Of a stretch of 64,000 nucleotides of DNA, positions 6,418-19,928 are shown one piece after another (within the stretch, counting starts at the first letter, position 1; each line of letters begins with the position of its first letter). The notes beneath the pieces are model-generated. The model was not told the DNA's origin and did no database searches. It saw only the letters and a list, made by a program, of their open reading frames with translations. The translations under genes were made by a program, and so were the position numbers. This DNA comes from Methylosarcina fibrata AML-C10 (GTDB taxonomy: Bacteria > Pseudomonadota > Gammaproteobacteria > Methylococcales > Methylomonadaceae): assembly GCF_000372865.1 (NCBI RefSeq), contig NZ_KB889965.1, positions 4,113,786-4,177,785 of the forward strand. Direction: 5' to 3'.

Positions 6418-6942
6418 ATGAAAAATGTTCTCGTCCCTGTTTTGGGTTTTGCCGCCGCCAGCGGTACCGGGAAGACCACGTTGCTGGAGCAACTCATTCC
6501 CATGTTGAGACAACGGGGATTGAAGGTCGGTTTAATCAAACACAGCCATCACAGCTTTGACATCGACCATCCGGGAAAAGACAGCTTCCGCTTGCGTGCA
6601 GCCGGAGCGTCTCCGGTGATGCTGATATCGCGGAAGAGGCGCGCCATCATAACCGAATTTGCCGCTCAAGACGAACCCCGGCTGGACGACCAGCTCAAGG
6701 CGTTCGACCAGACCGGCCTGGACCTTATTCTGGTGGAAGGATTCAAGTCGGAACCGATTCCCAAAATCGAGCTGCACAGAGAAGCTCTGAATCGGCCGAT
6801 GCTTTATCCCGAAGATCCCCATATCTTCGCGGTTGCCAGCGACAGTCCTTTAGCCTTGCCGGGCCGTCTGGTCCGGCTGGACATCAATCAGCCGAGGCTG
6901 ATCGCCGAATTCGTTTTGAACTGGAGCGCGAGCCGTCAATGA
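6418..6942 (+). CDS. mobB: Molybdopterin-guanine dinucleotide biosynthesis adaptor MobB
   Basis: This 174-residue P-loop GTPase-like protein has a Walker A at residues ~13-20 (AASGTGKTT). The family signature follows: LKVGLIKHSHH, then FDIDHPGKDSFRLRAAGA, then DLILVEGFK. MobB assists MobA in attaching GMP to molybdopterin. The gene overlaps moeA through an ATGA junction, giving a tightly coupled pair for late molybdenum cofactor synthesis. This implies molybdoenzymes such as nitrate reductase or formate dehydrogenase elsewhere. mobA itself is not in the window. Confidence 0.95.
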   Translation: MKNVLVPVLGFAAASGTGKTTLLEQLIPMLRQRGLKVGLIKHSHHSFDIDHPGKDSFRLRAAGASPVMLISRKRRAIITEFAAQDEPRLDDQLKAFDQTGLDLILVEGFKSEPIPKIELHREALNRPMLYPEDPHIFAVASDSPLALPGRLVRLDINQPRLIAEFVLNWSASRQ

Positions 6943-8183
6943 AGGATCGTTGCAGCCTGGAACCGAACCCGCTTCTGTCCGTCGAGGAAGCGAGAGAGAA
7001 CATAGTCGCCGCGGTCGAGTCCGTGGCGGGACGGGAAAAAACCTCTTTGAACGAGGCGCTCGGGCGCATCCTTTCGCAAACCGTTTATTCGCCGATCGAC
7101 ATTCCCTGCGACAGGAACTCGGCGATGGACGGCTATGCCTTCAGCAGCCGCGACATCATGCCGGGGCAGCCTTTCAGCTTGCGCCTGGCCGGCAGCTCGT
7201 GGGCGGGCCGGCCGTTCGACGGTCAATTGCAGGCAGGCGAATGCATCCGGATCTTTACCGGAGCCGTGGTGCCGCCGGCGGCCGATTCCGTCGTCATGCA
7301 GGAAGCGGTGGCCGCCGAAGACCAAAACATTCTTTTTCCGGCCGATACCGCAGCCCGTCAAAACATCCGGGAGGCGGGCGAGGACGTTGAGCAGGGCGGC
7401 CTGCTGGTGACCGAAGGCAAAAAACTGACGCCCATGGACATCGCTTTACTGGCGGCCGCCGGTATTGTCGAGGTTGACGTGAAGCGGCGCCTGCGCATCG
7501 CTTATTTTTCGACCGGGGACGAGTTGACCGCGCTCGGTCGTCCTCTGGAACCCGGCAAGATTTACGACAGCAACCGTTACGGACTGGGCGGATTATTGAA
7601 GGATCCTGCATACAGCATCGCCGATCTGGGCCGCATCCCCGACAACAGAGAGCGACTTGCCGCCTGCCTGCTTGAAGCGGCAAGAAATTTCGACGTCCTC
7701 ATTACGACGGGCGGCGTTTCGGTGGGAGAAGCCGATTACATGAAGGAGTTGCTGGCCGAACTCGGCCGGGTCCATTTGTGGAAAGTCGCGATCAAGCCCG
7801 GAAAACCCCTGGCGTTCGGCATGATCGACCGATGCTGTTATTTCGGCTTGCCGGGCAACCCGGTTTCCGTATTCGTCACCTTCCATCAACTGGTCGAGCC
7901 GGCGTTGAGACGGCTTTCGGGTACGCATCCGGGCCAGCGTTTGCGGATCAAGGCGGTTTGCACTTCCAGGCTGAAAAAAGCGCCTGGCAGGCAGGAGTTC
8001 CAGCGCGGCATTCTTGCCCAGAATGCGGACGGCGATTATTTTGTGTCGGCGGCGGGCGGCCAGGGCTCTCACCGGTTGGAACCGATGAGCCGAAGCCAGT
8101 GTTACATCGTGCTGCCGGCCGATTGCCGGGGAGTGCAGCCCGGCGAAACGGTTCTGGTCGAGCCGTTCGGTCTGTTTCTGTAA
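6939..8183 (+). CDS. moeA: Molybdopterin molybdenumtransferase MoeA
   Basis: This 414-residue enzyme inserts molybdate into adenylated molybdopterin. Characteristic stretches are IPCDRNSAMDGYAF (residues ~53-66), EDVEQGG, the GEPHN/MogA-like domain with TTGGVSVGEADYMKE (~250-264) and KPGKPLAFG, and a C-terminal beta barrel. Length matches MoeA (about 400-410). The start codon sits in the mobB stop (ATGA). No moaA-E genes are nearby. Codon use looks like that of its neighbours. Confidence 0.95.
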   Translation: MKDRCSLEPNPLLSVEEARENIVAAVESVAGREKTSLNEALGRILSQTVYSPIDIPCDRNSAMDGYAFSSRDIMPGQPFSLRLAGSSWAGRPFDGQLQAGECIRIFTGAVVPPAADSVVMQEAVAAEDQNILFPADTAARQNIREAGEDVEQGGLLVTEGKKLTPMDIALLAAAGIVEVDVKRRLRIAYFSTGDELTALGRPLEPGKIYDSNRYGLGGLLKDPAYSIADLGRIPDNRERLAACLLEAARNFDVLITTGGVSVGEADYMKELLAELGRVHLWKVAIKPGKPLAFGMIDRCCYFGLPGNPVSVFVTFHQLVEPALRRLSGTHPGQRLRIKAVCTSRLKKAPGRQEFQRGILAQNADGDYFVSAAGGQGSHRLEPMSRSQCYIVLPADCRGVQPGETVLVEPFGLFL

Positions 8184-8263
8184 GGCCGGCGGTTTTTGAT
8201 CCGGCGACAGAAAAATTCGCCGATGGCTTTTAGAGAAATAAAGCCGTTTTTATCCCGGCAGCC

Positions 8264-8447
8264 TGTGTATAACTTTGTGGATAAGGTCTAGACAACTTGT
8301 TCAGAATCGGCCATTGGCTTCTTCTTCGGTCGATCGGTATAAAAAATCTTATATTATAATCAATGAGATAATTCTAATTGGCTGATGAATTCCACAGCGC
8401 ATGGCGAATAAACAAGGCTTGGCCGCTTCAATTAATTCTGTGCATAA
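8264..8447. promoter_or_regulatory. Intergenic cluster of three DnaA-box-like 9-mers (region 8184-8533)
   Basis: The 350-bp gap after moeA has three perfect matches to the loose DnaA box TTATNCACA, all in the same orientation as TGTGNATAA: 8264-8272 (TGTGTATAA), 8276-8284 (TGTGGATAA) and 8439-8447 (TGTGCATAA). Two are only 12 bp apart, start to start. An AT-rich segment lies between (8338-8385). By simple base counting about two such 9-mers are expected in the whole 64 kb. No dnaA, dnaN, mnmG or rpmH is nearby, so a DnaA-titration or regulatory site is as likely as an origin. Confidence 0.45.
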
Positions 8448-11971: not shown

Positions 11972-13642
11972 TCAGATATCGAGCTCAAGATCGGAAGCGG
12001 CGGTGCTCGAGCAGGTATAAACAAAACCGGCTTTGCGGGTTTTTTCGTCGATTTCGCAATGAGGGCCGATGCTGACCTGGCCTCGGCATTTGACTTCGCA
12101 TTCGCCGCAACTGCCGCTGCGGCAACTGTAATCGATCTCGATGCCGTGCGCTTCGGCCAGTTCCAGAAGCGTGGTGTGTTCATCGGTGTCGACCGTTATG
12201 CCGGACTTGACAAAACGGACTTTGTGCAGAGTGCCTCTGAGCTGCGCAATTCCGCCGGTCTTGGCGGCAGGCGGGGCGGAGCGTCCCGAGCCGAAACTTT
12301 CCGTGTGATACCGCGACATGTCATAGCCCATGTCCCGCAAAATGCCGCTGAGAGATTGCGCAAACGGATCGGGGCCGCACAGAAAGACGTCGCGTTCAAT
12401 AAGATCGGGTACGAACAAGTTCAGCATGGGGGCATTAATACGCCCGGTAAACCCGGTCCAATGCTCGGTTCCCGACCAGCTCGAGGTCAGCGTAAACGCG
12501 ACCTGAAAGCGGCCGGTGCGCGCCGACAGCATCTCCAGCTCTTTGCGGAAAATAATCTCCTGCGGCGATTTGAAGGACGCCAGCAATTTGACGTCGACTT
12601 CCGCAGCGGTGTCCGCGATCCAGCGCAACATCGAAAGAATGGGGACGATGCCGCTGCCGGCCCCGATAAACAGCAGTTTTCGGGACGAGGATGCGAAACA
12701 GGTGAAATGACCCAAAGGTCCGGTTACGGTCAGCTCGTCACCCGGTTTGATCTGATTGCAGAACCAGTTGGACACCAGCCCGTCCGGTACTCTCTTGACG
12801 GTGATTTCCAGTAAATGGGGGCGCGAGGGACTGGACGACAGGCTGTAGGAACGTCTGACTTCCCGGCCGTTGACGTTCAGTATGAAGGTGACGTACTGGC
12901 CCGGTTTGTAGCAAAACAGGAGCGGCTGCACCGGCATCAGGCGAAAGGTTTTGCAATCGTGGGTTTCGTCGAGGATATCGACGACCCGTAACCGGGTAAG
13001 GCCCGGATTCCATGTTTTCAAACGCTCCAGGTTTTCGATCAGATGGATCCGCAGGGGAGTGGGCGCCACCGGCGGTGAATAAAAAAAGTCGGGGACGGCG
13101 TCGGGTTCCGATAAAGGCTGATTCTCTTCGCCGACAGGCGGTGCGCCGGCCAGTGAAAACGCCAGTCGATAGCCCGGCAGGTCTATGAGAATTCCGTCGT
13201 ATAACTGAATCCGTTTTTTTAGCGGCAGTTTTTTTCTGTTCAGGTAAAGGCCGTTTTCGGCATCCAGGCTTTCCAGATAGAACTTTCCGGAGTCGTGGAG
13301 GATGACGGCGTGATAGGGCGCCATTTTATTGGATTCGAGCCGTAAATCGGCGCTCCGGTGTCGGCCGATCAGCGTGACCGGCGCCAGTCCCCGCACAGGA
13401 ATTTCCAGGACGATCCTGCCTTTTTTGAATACCCTCATCACGTCGCCGGGTTGCTGATTCGGACCGATGCCGGCAAACAGCCGATTCAGCCAGTATTCGC
13501 TGGAATCCGTAAGGCCGGGGTGTTCCTTCGGTGCGTCGTTTCGGGTCGGGTGTGAAGGGGGCGCGGCTAAATCCTTGCCGGCAAAGAAGGATTTTTGCCA
13601 GAATAATTTACCGATGGCTTCGGCTTCATTTTTTGTCTTCAT
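11972..13642 (-). CDS. FHA domain - FAD/NAD(P)H reductase - 2Fe-2S ferredoxin fusion
   Basis: This 556-residue cytosolic redox protein has three modules. Residues ~68-165 are a forkhead-associated domain (VTLIGRHRSADLRL, then YHAVIL; the usual Ser before the conserved His appears to be replaced). Residues ~215-450 are a ferredoxin-NADP reductase-type module with FAD motif RRSYSLSS (263-270), nucleotide loop IGAGSGIVPILSM (326-338) and CGPDPF. Residues ~470-556 are a plant-type 2Fe-2S domain with ligands Cys507, Cys512, Cys515 and Cys544. The reductase/ferredoxin part resembles hybrid-cluster-protein reductase and flavohaemoglobin reductase. The AAGGGGA ribosome-binding site is 5 nt from the ATG. 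It follows the PPOX-globin gene by 119 bp, probably in one operon. Confidence 0.88.
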   Translation of the reverse strand: MKTKNEAEAIGKLFWQKSFFAGKDLAAPPSHPTRNDAPKEHPGLTDSSEYWLNRLFAGIGPNQQPGDVMRVFKKGRIVLEIPVRGLAPVTLIGRHRSADLRLESNKMAPYHAVILHDSGKFYLESLDAENGLYLNRKKLPLKKRIQLYDGILIDLPGYRLAFSLAGAPPVGEENQPLSEPDAVPDFFYSPPVAPTPLRIHLIENLERLKTWNPGLTRLRVVDILDETHDCKTFRLMPVQPLLFCYKPGQYVTFILNVNGREVRRSYSLSSSPSRPHLLEITVKRVPDGLVSNWFCNQIKPGDELTVTGPLGHFTCFASSSRKLLFIGAGSGIVPILSMLRWIADTAAEVDVKLLASFKSPQEIIFRKELEMLSARTGRFQVAFTLTSSWSGTEHWTGFTGRINAPMLNLFVPDLIERDVFLCGPDPFAQSLSGILRDMGYDMSRYHTESFGSGRSAPPAAKTGGIAQLRGTLHKVRFVKSGITVDTDEHTTLLELAEAHGIEIDYSCRSGSCGECEVKCRGQVSIGPHCEIDEKTRKAGFVYTCSSTAASDLELDI

Positions 13643-13761
13643 GGTGTCCCCTTTTTTATAGTTGTCGTTATTAAACCGGGGTGATGGTAAAAAGCGATGC
13701 GTTCCATCCTGCGTTCGCTCAATTTGCCGTTGAGCCTGAACATTGCGGCGACGTTTTTCGG

Positions 13762-15027
13762 TTACCGGTTCAAAACCGACTCGCGCGTGCCTTCCAGAAT
13801 CTTCATTATTTCTTCTACCTGATCGGGCGGAATATTCACTTCGGTCACCGTTTCCCGAAAGAGCTCACAGACCCGATCGAAATGCACGTCGGACAGTCCG
13901 TATTGATCCACCAGGCGTTTGTGACTTGTCCTGAGATCGGCGCCGGTGTACTGGTAAGGCCCGCCGAAGGCCATAGTCAGGAAGGATTTCTGTTTCAGGC
14001 GCTGTTTTTCCATATCGACGTCCTGAAAAAAACGCCCGACCAGTTTGTCATGCAATACTTTCCGGTAAAACAGATCGGTACAGATCTCCAAGGCCTTGTC
14101 GCCGCCGATCCGATCGTACAGCGGAAGCTGCATCAGTTGAAAATAATCGCCGCCCTTGGCGGCGACGTCGTCGGTGCCCCATTCGATTTTCTTGTCCAGT
14201 TTTTTCATCAGGGGGATGTGTTTCGAACATTGAATGTAGGCTTCTTCCACCTCCACCATGACCCAGCGTTCCGGGCATTTCTTTCCTTCCTGATGAATTT
14301 CCTCGATGACGTCCTCGCTCAGCTTGTCCCGGCACTCGAGCAGTTCTTCGTTGCTGACGATCCGGACCTTGCCGTTGACGTGAAGCCCTACCGTATCCTG
14401 AGTGAAATCGATCATCAGCAGGGCAATATGAGGATTTTCCATCATGTTGCCGGTATTGGCGAACACGCCGTTGCCCCGATATTCCGGATAGATCAAGTGT
14501 TTGTCGCTCAGTACCCGGATAAAGCCGGGCTTGCCGAATTTCGACGTGCAATCGCACTCGCCGTGGCGGTCCGCCGTGGCGACGAACAGGAATTCCTGGC
14601 GCTGGATGAATTCCTGCATTTTGGGAGCCAGAAAATCCAGCACCTGCTTATGGTAGAAATTACAGGCGCGGTCCTGGGTTTGCCATTGTTCCTGAAGCCG
14701 GTGCTCGGCAGCGCAGCCGGGCAGGAGAGGCGGTTTTTCTTGAGCGGGTGCGCCTTCCTGTTTTGTCTTTCTTTTAGGTTCAGTGGCATTTTCGGACAAA
14801 AAAAGATCGTTTCCGGGTGGGCGGGCCGTCCTGAACCGGTGTTTGAAAAAAGCAAATTTTTCGGGCGTTGTCCAGGAAGGGCCTTCCTTGACTCCGGATG
14901 CGGCTGCCGCCAGGTTGATTTCTTCGTATGAGGTTGAGGAGTCGGATGGCTGGGGCGGGAGCTCATGCGAGGCTGAAGCTTTTGCCGTTCTGTTTTTATT
15001 TGGTTTTTTGAAAATAAATCTGCCCAT
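13762..15027 (-). CDS. PPOX flavin-binding domain - truncated haemoglobin fusion
   Basis: This 421-residue cytosolic protein has an ATG at 15027 (MGRFIFKKPN), 6 nt after AAGGAG; an upstream in-frame ATG lacks such a site. Residues ~1-125 are a polar, probably disordered leader. Residues ~130-280 are a pyridoxamine-phosphate-oxidase-like split barrel (EFLFVATADRHGECD, FANTGNMMENPHIALL) expected to bind a flavin. Residues ~300-415 are a group I truncated haemoglobin: LYDRIGG, FFQDVDMEKQRLKQKSF, LTMAFGGPYQYTG, and HFDRV with the likely proximal His. Globin plus partner reductase downstream points to NO or O2 chemistry. The domain combination is unusual. Confidence 0.88.
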   Translation of the reverse strand: MGRFIFKKPNKNRTAKASASHELPPQPSDSSTSYEEINLAAAASGVKEGPSWTTPEKFAFFKHRFRTARPPGNDLFLSENATEPKRKTKQEGAPAQEKPPLLPGCAAEHRLQEQWQTQDRACNFYHKQVLDFLAPKMQEFIQRQEFLFVATADRHGECDCTSKFGKPGFIRVLSDKHLIYPEYRGNGVFANTGNMMENPHIALLMIDFTQDTVGLHVNGKVRIVSNEELLECRDKLSEDVIEEIHQEGKKCPERWVMVEVEEAYIQCSKHIPLMKKLDKKIEWGTDDVAAKGGDYFQLMQLPLYDRIGGDKALEICTDLFYRKVLHDKLVGRFFQDVDMEKQRLKQKSFLTMAFGGPYQYTGADLRTSHKRLVDQYGLSDVHFDRVCELFRETVTEVNIPPDQVEEIMKILEGTRESVLNR

Positions 15028-18814: not shown

Positions 18815-19462
18815 TCACGAAGAAACACAAGGATACAGGCGAGCCAGTTTACGTCGTGCCTGTTGCGTCGTAAATCGCCAATTGACGGGCGTCGCCTTGG
18901 TGTTGCGCGGTAGGATATTGGCTTCGACCTCACGCCGGAGGCTCTCTGTGTCCGGTATCCGCTGTGATAAACACATGTTCGACAAGACGGCCAGTTCGAT
19001 CTCAGCGATGTTTAGCCAACTGCCATGCTTGGGCGTGTAGTGGAACTCCAGCCGTCGCGCCAATTCACGGGCTTGCTCTGCTGGAAAGGCTTCATACAAA
19101 GACGCCATTTTATGGGTATTCAGATTGTCCAGCACCACCCGGATCACCGCCGCGTCCGGATAAAGTTCAGCGATATGCTTCATGCTGTGCGCGAATTCGA
19201 TTTTGGTCCGCCGCGCGGTGATGTCCACCTGCCGAAAACCGCGTTTAGGTTCGCAGATCATCATCAAATCGCAGACGCCTTTCCGTTCATAGCCGGTGTC
19301 ATAGCGGGCCGGTTGACCGGGCTCAGGCGGGAGAGGTTGGCGGACTTCCGCAATGAGTTGCTTCGGACTTTCGTCGAAACACACAACCGGGCGCAACGGA
19401 TCGTAGGGTTCTTCATAAAGGTCCAGCACGTCTTCCATCGCCGCGACAAATTCAGCACTCAC
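18815..19462 (-). CDS. IS630 transposase, C-terminal frame (DDE catalytic part)
   Basis: This part encodes the RNase-H-like DDE domain: first Asp in VVCFDESPKQL, second Asp in VIRVVLDNLNTHK and the Glu in HGSWLNIAEIELAVLS. All three catalytic residues are present. The first in-frame GTG/ATG-like codon lies at the 11-bp overlap with the N-terminal frame. It is more likely translated as a fusion through slippage at the upstream A7 tract than independently. The stop TGA lies 5 bp inside the left end of the element. Confidence 0.85.
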   Translation of the reverse strand: MSAEFVAAMEDVLDLYEEPYDPLRPVVCFDESPKQLIAEVRQPLPPEPGQPARYDTGYERKGVCDLMMICEPKRGFRQVDITARRTKIEFAHSMKHIAELYPDAAVIRVVLDNLNTHKMASLYEAFPAEQARELARRLEFHYTPKHGSWLNIAEIELAVLSNMCLSQRIPDTESLRREVEANILPRNTKATPVNWRFTTQQARRKLARLYPCVSS

Positions 19463-19928
19463 CTCGGGAATGCACCACTCTTGCTTCTGCCAGGGTTTGA
19501 GAGTGTTTTTTTAAAAGCTGACGGATGGTTTCATAGCTGCAACGGTCGGCATACGCTAATTCCACCACTTTGTCCGCCAACAACCGCAAGGTCCAGTGAT
19601 CATGCCCTGTCGGCGCCTCACTACAAGCCAAGGCGATAATATGGGCGGCCTGCTTCTCCGTCAGTTTTGGGGCACGTCCTGGACGGGGGCGTTCTTTCAG
19701 GGCGGCTTCCGGGCCTTCTTCCACACACCGTTGGCGCGTCGTCAACACCATTGATTCCGAGACACCCAAAGCTTGGATAATGTCTTTATCCTGAATACCC
19801 GCTGCCGCTTTTAATAAAATTCGCGCGCGTGTCAGATGGCGTGCCGCGGCTTTTCCTTTGTTGATCATGGCTTCCAAGCCACGCTTTTCGTCTTCAGTCA
19901 GATTGACTTTGTATTTAAGAGCTGGCAT
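19452..19928 (-). CDS. IS630 transposase, N-terminal frame (DNA-binding part)
   Basis: This 158-residue product carries the helix-turn-helix part of an IS630 transposase: LTRARILLKAAAGIQDKDI, then the winged-helix region ALGVSESMVLTTRQRCVEEG. A GAGG ribosome-binding site precedes the ATG. In its last 20 codons the frame diverges from the family: after a seven-A tract (complement of 19506-19512) it reads KHSQTLAEAR. Shifting frame by +1 or -2 restores NTLKPWQKQEWCIPE and joins the DDE part. Either slippage at the A7 tract is used for expression or the gene is disabled. Confidence 0.85.
   Translation of the reverse strand: MPALKYKVNLTEDEKRGLEAMINKGKAAARHLTRARILLKAAAGIQDKDIIQALGVSESMVLTTRQRCVEEGPEAALKERPRPGRAPKLTEKQAAHIIALACSEAPTGHDHWTLRLLADKVVELAYADRCSYETIRQLLKKHSQTLAEARVVHSRGEC

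What the first reader, a model, noticed from the sequence alone, without database searches (positions are those of the whole stretch)
11972..15027. Split flavohaemoglobin-like operon: PPOX-truncated globin plus FHA-reductase-ferredoxin
Flavohaemoglobin joins a globin to a FAD/NAD reductase in one protein. Here a truncated globin fused to a flavin-binding PPOX domain is followed by a reductase carrying a 2Fe-2S domain and an FHA domain. The parts for an electron path NAD(P)H-FAD-2Fe-2S-(flavin)-haem are all present. The FHA domain could link activity to protein phosphorylation. Likely roles are NO dioxygenation or O2 sensing. The domain combination is unusual to my knowledge.
Basis: partly seen in the sequence, partly recalled or inferred. 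Interest (0 to 1): 0.75.

Follow-up and report, generated by a model that had tools for sequence, protein, structure and literature searches.

The report
Reductase-fed flavin–haemoglobin fusion in methanotrophs
Two neighbouring methanotroph genes encode an NAD(P)H-driven reductase and a flavin-domain–haemoglobin fusion that stay together across relatives and probably handle toxic nitric oxide, although the part that never changes is the flavin domain, because several relatives have lost the globin's haem-holding residue.

Summary
13762-15027(-) encodes a PPOX domain fused to a group I truncated globin (P0002); 11972-13642(-) encodes FHA-FAD-NAD-2Fe-2S (P0001). The pair is conserved: 26 of 151 family genomes carry the fusion (28 loci), and 26 of those loci have an FNR/2Fe-2S reductase next door, in either gene order. 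It also occurs in Bradyrhizobium and Sphingomonas.

"Split flavohaemoglobin" is only partly supported. The window's globin keeps its haem pocket (Tyr321, Gln342, Lys345, Gln346, His369), but a sister clade, Bradyrhizobium, Sphingomonas and a Methylothermaceae MAG replaced or deleted the proximal His while PPOX stayed strongly conserved. The constant core is PPOX plus reductase.

In 20 actinobacterial loci the free-standing PPOX sits beside a true flavohaemoglobin. In two Methylococcaceae MAGs the pair is contiguous with assimilatory nitrate reductase genes; in Bradyrhizobium it lies between nas genes and NarK.

Best reading: a two-protein NAD(P)H-FAD-2Fe-2S-(FMN)-haem system for NO defence, whose globin is sometimes demoted to a non-haem domain. 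Phosphorylation control through FHA is weakly supported. The genome also has a plainer split trHb + reductase pair. No function was measured.

The parts
13762..15027 (-). P0002, 421 aa: PPOX domain fused to group I truncated globin
   Evidence: relatives; AlphaFold model
14743..15027 (-). Residues 1-95 of P0002: low-complexity N-terminal extension, predicted disordered
   Evidence: pLDDT mostly below 55; absent or short in type B relatives
14227..14628 (-). PPOX split-barrel domain of P0002 (residues 134-267); C158, H216, C267, H270 invariant in the wider family
13771..14121 (-). Group I truncated globin domain of P0002 (residues 303-419): Tyr321 B10, Gln342 E7, Lys345 E10, Gln346 E11, His369 F8
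11972..13642 (-). P0001, 556 aa: FHA - FAD - NAD(P) - 2Fe-2S reductase
13472..13492 (-). W51-x3-L55-F56 motif (WLNRLFA) in the N-terminus of P0001, kept in nearly all relatives with or without FHA; possible docking motif
   Evidence: F56 invariant, W51 and L55 nearly invariant
13178..13375 (-). FHA domain of P0001 (residues 90-155); Arg of GR kept, Ser of SxxH replaced by Ala
12704..12985 (-). FAD-binding domain of P0001 (residues 220-313)
12353..12670 (-). NAD(P)-binding domain of P0001 (residues 325-430)
11999..12205 (-). Plant-type 2Fe-2S domain of P0001 (residues 480-548)

Best explanation
The two genes form a two-protein redox unit. P0001 takes hydride from NAD(P)H on FAD and passes electrons through its 2Fe-2S domain to P0002, whose PPOX domain (probably FMN-binding) and globin haem are the acceptors. 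In the window's lineage the most likely job is removal of NO or other reactive nitrogen species: the ferrous-oxy globin converts NO to nitrate and the reductase re-reduces the haem. SHOWN: domain content, conserved pairing, intact haem ligands in this protein, neighbourhood with flavohaemoglobin and nas genes in relatives. INFERRED: cofactors, direction of electron flow, the PPOX step, NO as substrate. The family's constant core is PPOX plus reductase; haem looks usable here but was abandoned in at least two other lineages.
For: The pair stays adjacent in two opposite gene orders and across classes, and the distances of the two proteins correlate (r 0.87, 0 of 2000 permutations). The window globin has Tyr B10, Gln E7, Gln E11, His F8 and a Lys at E10; its nearest structures include Chlamydomonas THB1, a His-Lys truncated haemoglobin with NO dioxygenase activity tied to nitrate assimilation (PMC4304232; PMC7082302). 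Free-standing members of the PPOX family lie beside a flavohaemoglobin in 20 actinobacterial loci. In L074 and L075 the pair is contiguous with NasB/NasA-like genes, and in Bradyrhizobium it lies between NasB/NasC-like genes and NarK; in B. japonicum a haemoglobin plus flavoprotein in such a cluster protect against NO (PMC4724949). PPOX is fused directly to an FNR module elsewhere in the same genome (L061).
Against: The proximal His is lost in a whole sister clade, in Bradyrhizobium, in Sphingomonas and in L084 although PPOX and reductase are kept. The nas linkage is absent in the window. No NO-responsive promoter was found. The PPOX match is below the curated TIGR04025 cut-off (87 against 170 bits), so FMN binding is not established. 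Another trHb-reductase pair could already do this job.
Confidence: 0.45

Rival explanations
1. PPOX is the enzyme and the globin is a regulatory or structural domain. The reductase feeds the PPOX flavin, which acts on an unknown nitrogen-oxide or other substrate; the globin senses NO or O2 where it can bind haem and only docks or dimerises where it cannot.
For: PPOX is the invariant part of the fusion; the globin loses its ligand repeatedly but is still predicted as a confident globin-like fold in a type B protein; free-standing PPOX exists in many phyla without any globin of its own.
Against: The window clade keeps a full haem pocket, which argues that haem matters there. No substrate is known for this PPOX family.
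Confidence: 0.28
2. The PPOX domain handles haem (a HugZ/HupZ/HutZ-like split barrel) and the unit loads, repairs or degrades haem for globins, with electrons from the reductase.
For: The best PPOX structural match in both models is HupZ, with HutZ and a putative haem oxygenase further down; the PPOX lies next to flavohaemoglobins.
Against: By sequence the match is to PNPOx_N and TIGR04025, named as FMN-dependent; the HupZ sequence match is insignificant (E 0.35); FMN and F420 proteins of this fold score almost equally.
Confidence: 0.1
3. The pair mainly serves nitrate assimilation: the reductase donates electrons to the assimilatory nitrate reductase and P0002 is an accessory that clears by-product NO.
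For: Contiguity with NasB/NasA-like genes in L074/L075 and with NasC/NasB/NarK in Bradyrhizobium.
Against: The linkage is seen in two methanotroph MAGs and three Bradyrhizobium only; the window and most relatives have no nas gene nearby. Those nas clusters also carry their own NasB-like flavoprotein.
Confidence: 0.08
4. An O2 carrier or store that supplies methane monooxygenase under low oxygen.
For: Methanotroph truncated haemoglobins have been proposed to carry O2 to methane monooxygenase (PMC11102522).
Against: That needs no PPOX domain or dedicated reductase; the pair also occurs in Bradyrhizobium and Sphingomonas; a sister clade lacks the haem ligand.
Confidence: 0.05

Closest known systems
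Flavohaemoglobin (Hmp)
   Same: Globin plus FAD/NAD reductase modules working together; the PPOX family here is a neighbour of true Hmp in actinobacteria
   Different: Two proteins, a truncated (2/2) globin instead of PF00042, an added PPOX domain, an added 2Fe-2S domain and FHA
Bradyrhizobium japonicum Bjgb-Flp-NasC nitrate assimilation / NO detoxification system (PMC4724949)
   Same: Separate haemoglobin and NAD(P)H flavoprotein, linked to nas and narK genes in some relatives
   Different: Bjgb is a single-domain globin; no PPOX or FHA; the window pair is not next to nas genes
Chlamydomonas THB1 (group I truncated haemoglobin, His-Lys haem)
   Same: Group I fold and a Lys at the E10 position; THB1 has NO dioxygenase activity and is regulated with nitrate assimilation (PMC4304232)
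   Different: THB1 is a free-standing algal globin; no PPOX domain; other electron donors
MSMEG_1061/DR_2398-type PPOX flavoproteins (TIGR04025)
   Same: Recognisable sequence similarity over the barrel (E 9e-25)
   Different: Far below the curated cut-off; here fused to a globin and paired with a reductase
FNR reductases with C-terminal 2Fe-2S (Hcr, PaaE, GbcB type)
   Same: Same FAD-NAD-Fer2 order and best sequence similarity (GbcB 5e-94, Hcr 2e-58)
   Different: Below every curated cut-off; N-terminal FHA and W-x3-LF motif; different partner
Standalone trHb + Fer2-FNR pair of the same family (L060)
   Same: Truncated globin next to a 2Fe-2S flavin reductase
   Different: No PPOX, no FHA, Fer2 at the N-terminus of the reductase, SufR-like regulator beside it

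Membership tests
Flavohaemoglobin (Hmp) | Globin (PF00042) fused to FAD and NAD domains in one chain | tested here: not met
   Globin and reductase are separate genes and the globin is PF01152; no PF00042 gene in the genome
Flavohaemoglobin (Hmp) | NO dioxygenase activity with NAD(P)H | not testable with these tools
   Needs purified protein
Group I truncated haemoglobin | PF01152 match with Tyr B10, Gln E7/E11 and proximal His F8 | tested here: met
   Window protein; not met in type B, Bradyrhizobium, Sphingomonas and L084 relatives
Group I truncated haemoglobin | Binds haem | not testable with these tools
   Ligands present in the window protein only by sequence
PPOX / TIGR04025 FMN flavoprotein | Pfam PNPOx_N above cut-off | tested here: met
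   54.3 bits against 28.1
PPOX / TIGR04025 FMN flavoprotein | TIGR04025 curated cut-off | tested here: not met
   87 bits against 170; free-standing relatives also below
PPOX / TIGR04025 FMN flavoprotein | FMN bound | not testable with these tools
   No structure with ligand; fold matches include FMN, F420 and haem binders
FHA phosphothreonine-binding domain | Fold recognised above cut-off | tested here: met
   46.5 bits against 20.7
FHA phosphothreonine-binding domain | Arg of GR, Ser and His of SxxH, Asn loop | tested here: inconclusive
   Arg, His and an NG pair kept; Ser is Ala in the window protein. Ser/Thr kinases exist elsewhere in the genome
FNR reductase with C-terminal plant-type 2Fe-2S | FAD, NAD and Cx4Cx2C...C 2Fe-2S motifs in this order | tested here: met
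Bjgb-Flp-NasC type system | Linkage to assimilatory nitrate reductase and NarK | tested here: not met
   Not in the window; met in L074, L075 (NasB/NasA-like) and L079-L081

The most novel reading that the evidence does not exclude
The PPOX family carried by P0002 is an undescribed nitrogen-oxide enzyme or partner of haemoglobin systems across bacteria. In methanotrophs it captured a truncated globin and a 2Fe-2S reductase, and in some lineages the captured globin gave up haem binding and now serves as a non-haem domain of a flavin enzyme.
Probability: 0.25. Interest if true: 0.8.

Novelty: new variant of a known kind. Interest (0 to 1): 0.58.

Why it matters
It offers a genetically coherent, testable split version of flavohaemoglobin chemistry in methane oxidisers, where handling of nitrogen oxides bears on growth at low oxygen. 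It points to an overlooked PPOX family that sits beside flavohaemoglobin or nitrate genes in different phyla. It also gives a natural series in which a globin domain is kept with and without its haem ligand, so the role of the globin can be dissected by comparing relatives.

Tried and rejected
Consensus FNR/NNR, DNR and NsrR boxes upstream of the pair and 18 relatives: none clearly better than shuffles. Rfam over 8-20 kb: nothing. Sigma-70 and terminator scan: about chance. Literature searches found no PPOX-globin fusion or FHA-ferredoxin-globin link among open papers; a 2017 paper on trHb domain fusions (doi 10.1002/iub.1630) was not held, so a prior mention cannot be excluded. An MFS gene near the actinobacterial loci looked like a possible NarK but matches DHA2 efflux pumps, so it was dropped as nitrate evidence. 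A CxC metal site in PPOX (C158, C160) was dropped because the second Cys is not conserved in free-standing members. Nitrospira/Nitrospina and Bacilli neighbours (two-component regulators, Tex, tryptophan dioxygenase and others) gave no consistent functional hint. My notebook says 27 family genomes carry the fusion; a recount gives 26 genomes with 28 copies.

Full report
WHAT IS THERE. Two intact ORFs lie on the minus strand at the stated coordinates. P0002 (13762-15027, 421 aa) has a disordered N-terminus, a PPOX split barrel (134-267) and a group I truncated globin (303-419). P0001 (11972-13642, 556 aa) has FHA, FAD, NAD(P) and C-terminal 2Fe-2S domains. All six domains pass Pfam cut-offs. 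AlphaFold gives two confident domains in P0002; Foldseek matches the globin to Chlamydomonas truncated haemoglobins (1dly; THB1, 6cii) and the barrel to HupZ, an F420 reductase and PPOX structures.

IS THE PAIR REAL. Of 151 genomes of the family, 26 carry the fusion, in 28 places. In 26 of the 28 an FNR/2Fe-2S reductase is the immediate neighbour; one copy ends at a contig edge with the start of such a gene, and one is a broken copy (G030, L059) without a reductase. Two layouts exist. In type A, which includes the window, the fusion comes first and the reductase usually carries FHA; some members have an extra Fer2-FNR gene in between. In type B the reductase comes first and usually lacks FHA. 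Crenothrix polyspora (L039 and L054) and genome G120 (L036 and L053) carry one of each. Distances of the two proteins correlate, r 0.87, with 0 of 2000 permutations as high; shared descent contributes to this. In 397 other genomes of the phylum no fusion was found, but a pattern scan of genome contigs found it, with the reductase next door, in three Bradyrhizobium and in Sphingomonas echinoides. The fused PPOX domains form one clade against 51 free-standing ones (100/99 support), which suggests one fusion origin and later transfer.

WHAT IS CONSERVED. The PPOX domain is strongly conserved: C158, H216, C267 and H270 are invariant in 30 sequences. The globin is not. The window clade keeps Tyr321 (B10), Gln342 (E7, Leu in some), Lys345 (E10), Gln346 (E11) and His369 (F8). 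Type B copies, except L047 (His) and L084 (Leu), have Tyr in place of the proximal His, and most have also lost B10 Tyr and E7 Gln. Sphingomonas has Gly, and the Bradyrhizobium copies lack the F-helix segment and have His at B10. On the tree these are at least two independent losses. A type B protein is still predicted as a confident globin-like fold. Haem chemistry is thus likely in the window protein but is not the family's shared function. The numbering of E10 against Synechocystis GlbN rests on the alignments.

WHERE IT SITS ELSEWHERE. Twenty actinobacterial loci with a free-standing PPOX of this family have a flavohaemoglobin (globin-FAD-NAD) as neighbour, mostly divergent and once on the same strand; in the tree 23 such actinobacterial rows form one clade. 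These are relatives picked by a pattern search, so they are not 20 independent events. In two Methylococcaceae MAGs (L074, L075) the pair runs into a NasB-like and a NasA-like gene on the same strand, and in L075 the NasB-like start overlaps the reductase's stop. In Bradyrhizobium the pair is divergent from NasB/NasC-like genes and followed by NarK. In B. japonicum a haemoglobin and a flavoprotein in such a cluster protect against NO (PMC4724949). THB1, a group I globin with a distal Lys and NO dioxygenase activity, is controlled with nitrate assimilation in Chlamydomonas (PMC4304232; PMC7082302).

HOW IT MOST LIKELY WORKS. NAD(P)H to FAD to 2Fe-2S in P0001, then to PPOX flavin and/or haem in P0002, with NO as the likely substrate in this lineage. 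Domain content, pairing and neighbourhoods are shown; cofactors, transfer and substrate are inferred. A PPOX-FNR fusion in the same genome (L061) supports contact between such domains. The main rival makes PPOX the catalyst and the globin a sensor or scaffold; the repeated ligand losses keep it open.

The FHA SxxH Ser is Ala in the window protein and FHA is missing from most type B copies. The genome has an independent, plainer split pair: trHb L060:6842-7252 and Fer2-FNR reductase 7315-8301, with a divergent SufR-like regulator whose homologues share four Cys. A close relative of that reductase occurs in 54 of 61 family genomes; comparing its coordinates with the trHb places listed puts it beside a standalone trHb in about 40 of them. 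A group I trHb is among the ten most transcribed genes in Methyloprofundus (PMC8788690); which of the two kinds that is was not checked.

MEMBERSHIP AND NOVELTY. It works like a split flavohaemoglobin but is not a member of that family (separate genes, different globin family, extra domains). The globin is a true group I truncated haemoglobin by sequence. The PPOX domain passes PNPOx_N but not TIGR04025. No description of the fusion was found in open papers. I rate it a new variant of a known kind.

LIMITS. No expression or biochemical data; no NO-responsive promoter identified; the literature check covered open papers only; the wide scan kept only the best 80 of at least 552 PPOX relatives.

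Noticed in passing
L060:6002-8301 (G000:C1, about 3853000-3855300): Standalone group I trHb next to a Fer2-FNR reductase with a divergent SufR-like regulator that has four conserved Cys; the trHb-reductase pair is near-universal in the family (54 of 61 genomes have the reductase) and is a better candidate for a plain split flavohaemoglobin.
   Followed up: partly
L061:5732-7105 (-): A PPOX-FNR fusion (457 aa, no globin, no Fer2 match) elsewhere in the same genome: the PPOX domain sits where flavohaemoglobin has its globin.
   Followed up: partly
L039, L045, L051, L058 (also L072, L087, L093): SufR-like regulators with four conserved Cys also lie beside some PPOX-globin loci, which suggests an Fe-S (NO or redox) sensing regulator for these genes.
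   Followed up: partly
L105-L143, 20 actinobacterial loci: Free-standing PPOX of the GECD family beside a flavohaemoglobin, mostly divergent; a possible general NO-defence partner.
   Followed up: partly
window 13472-13492 and relatives in alignment A2: Short W-x3-LF motif in the disordered N-terminus of the reductase, duplicated in several FHA-bearing members; a possible docking peptide.
   Followed up: no
Genomes of family f40 (e.g. G183:C6:44494-45373): Tandem pairs of truncated globin genes about 150 bp apart in many genomes of another family of the phylum.
   Followed up: no
window 18815-19928 (-): Two overlapping ORFs that look like an IS630-type transposase, a few kb upstream of the pair.
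   Followed up: no
window 6418-8183 (+): Genes that look like MobB and MoeA (molybdenum cofactor) a few kb from the pair; probably unrelated, not tested.
   Followed up: no
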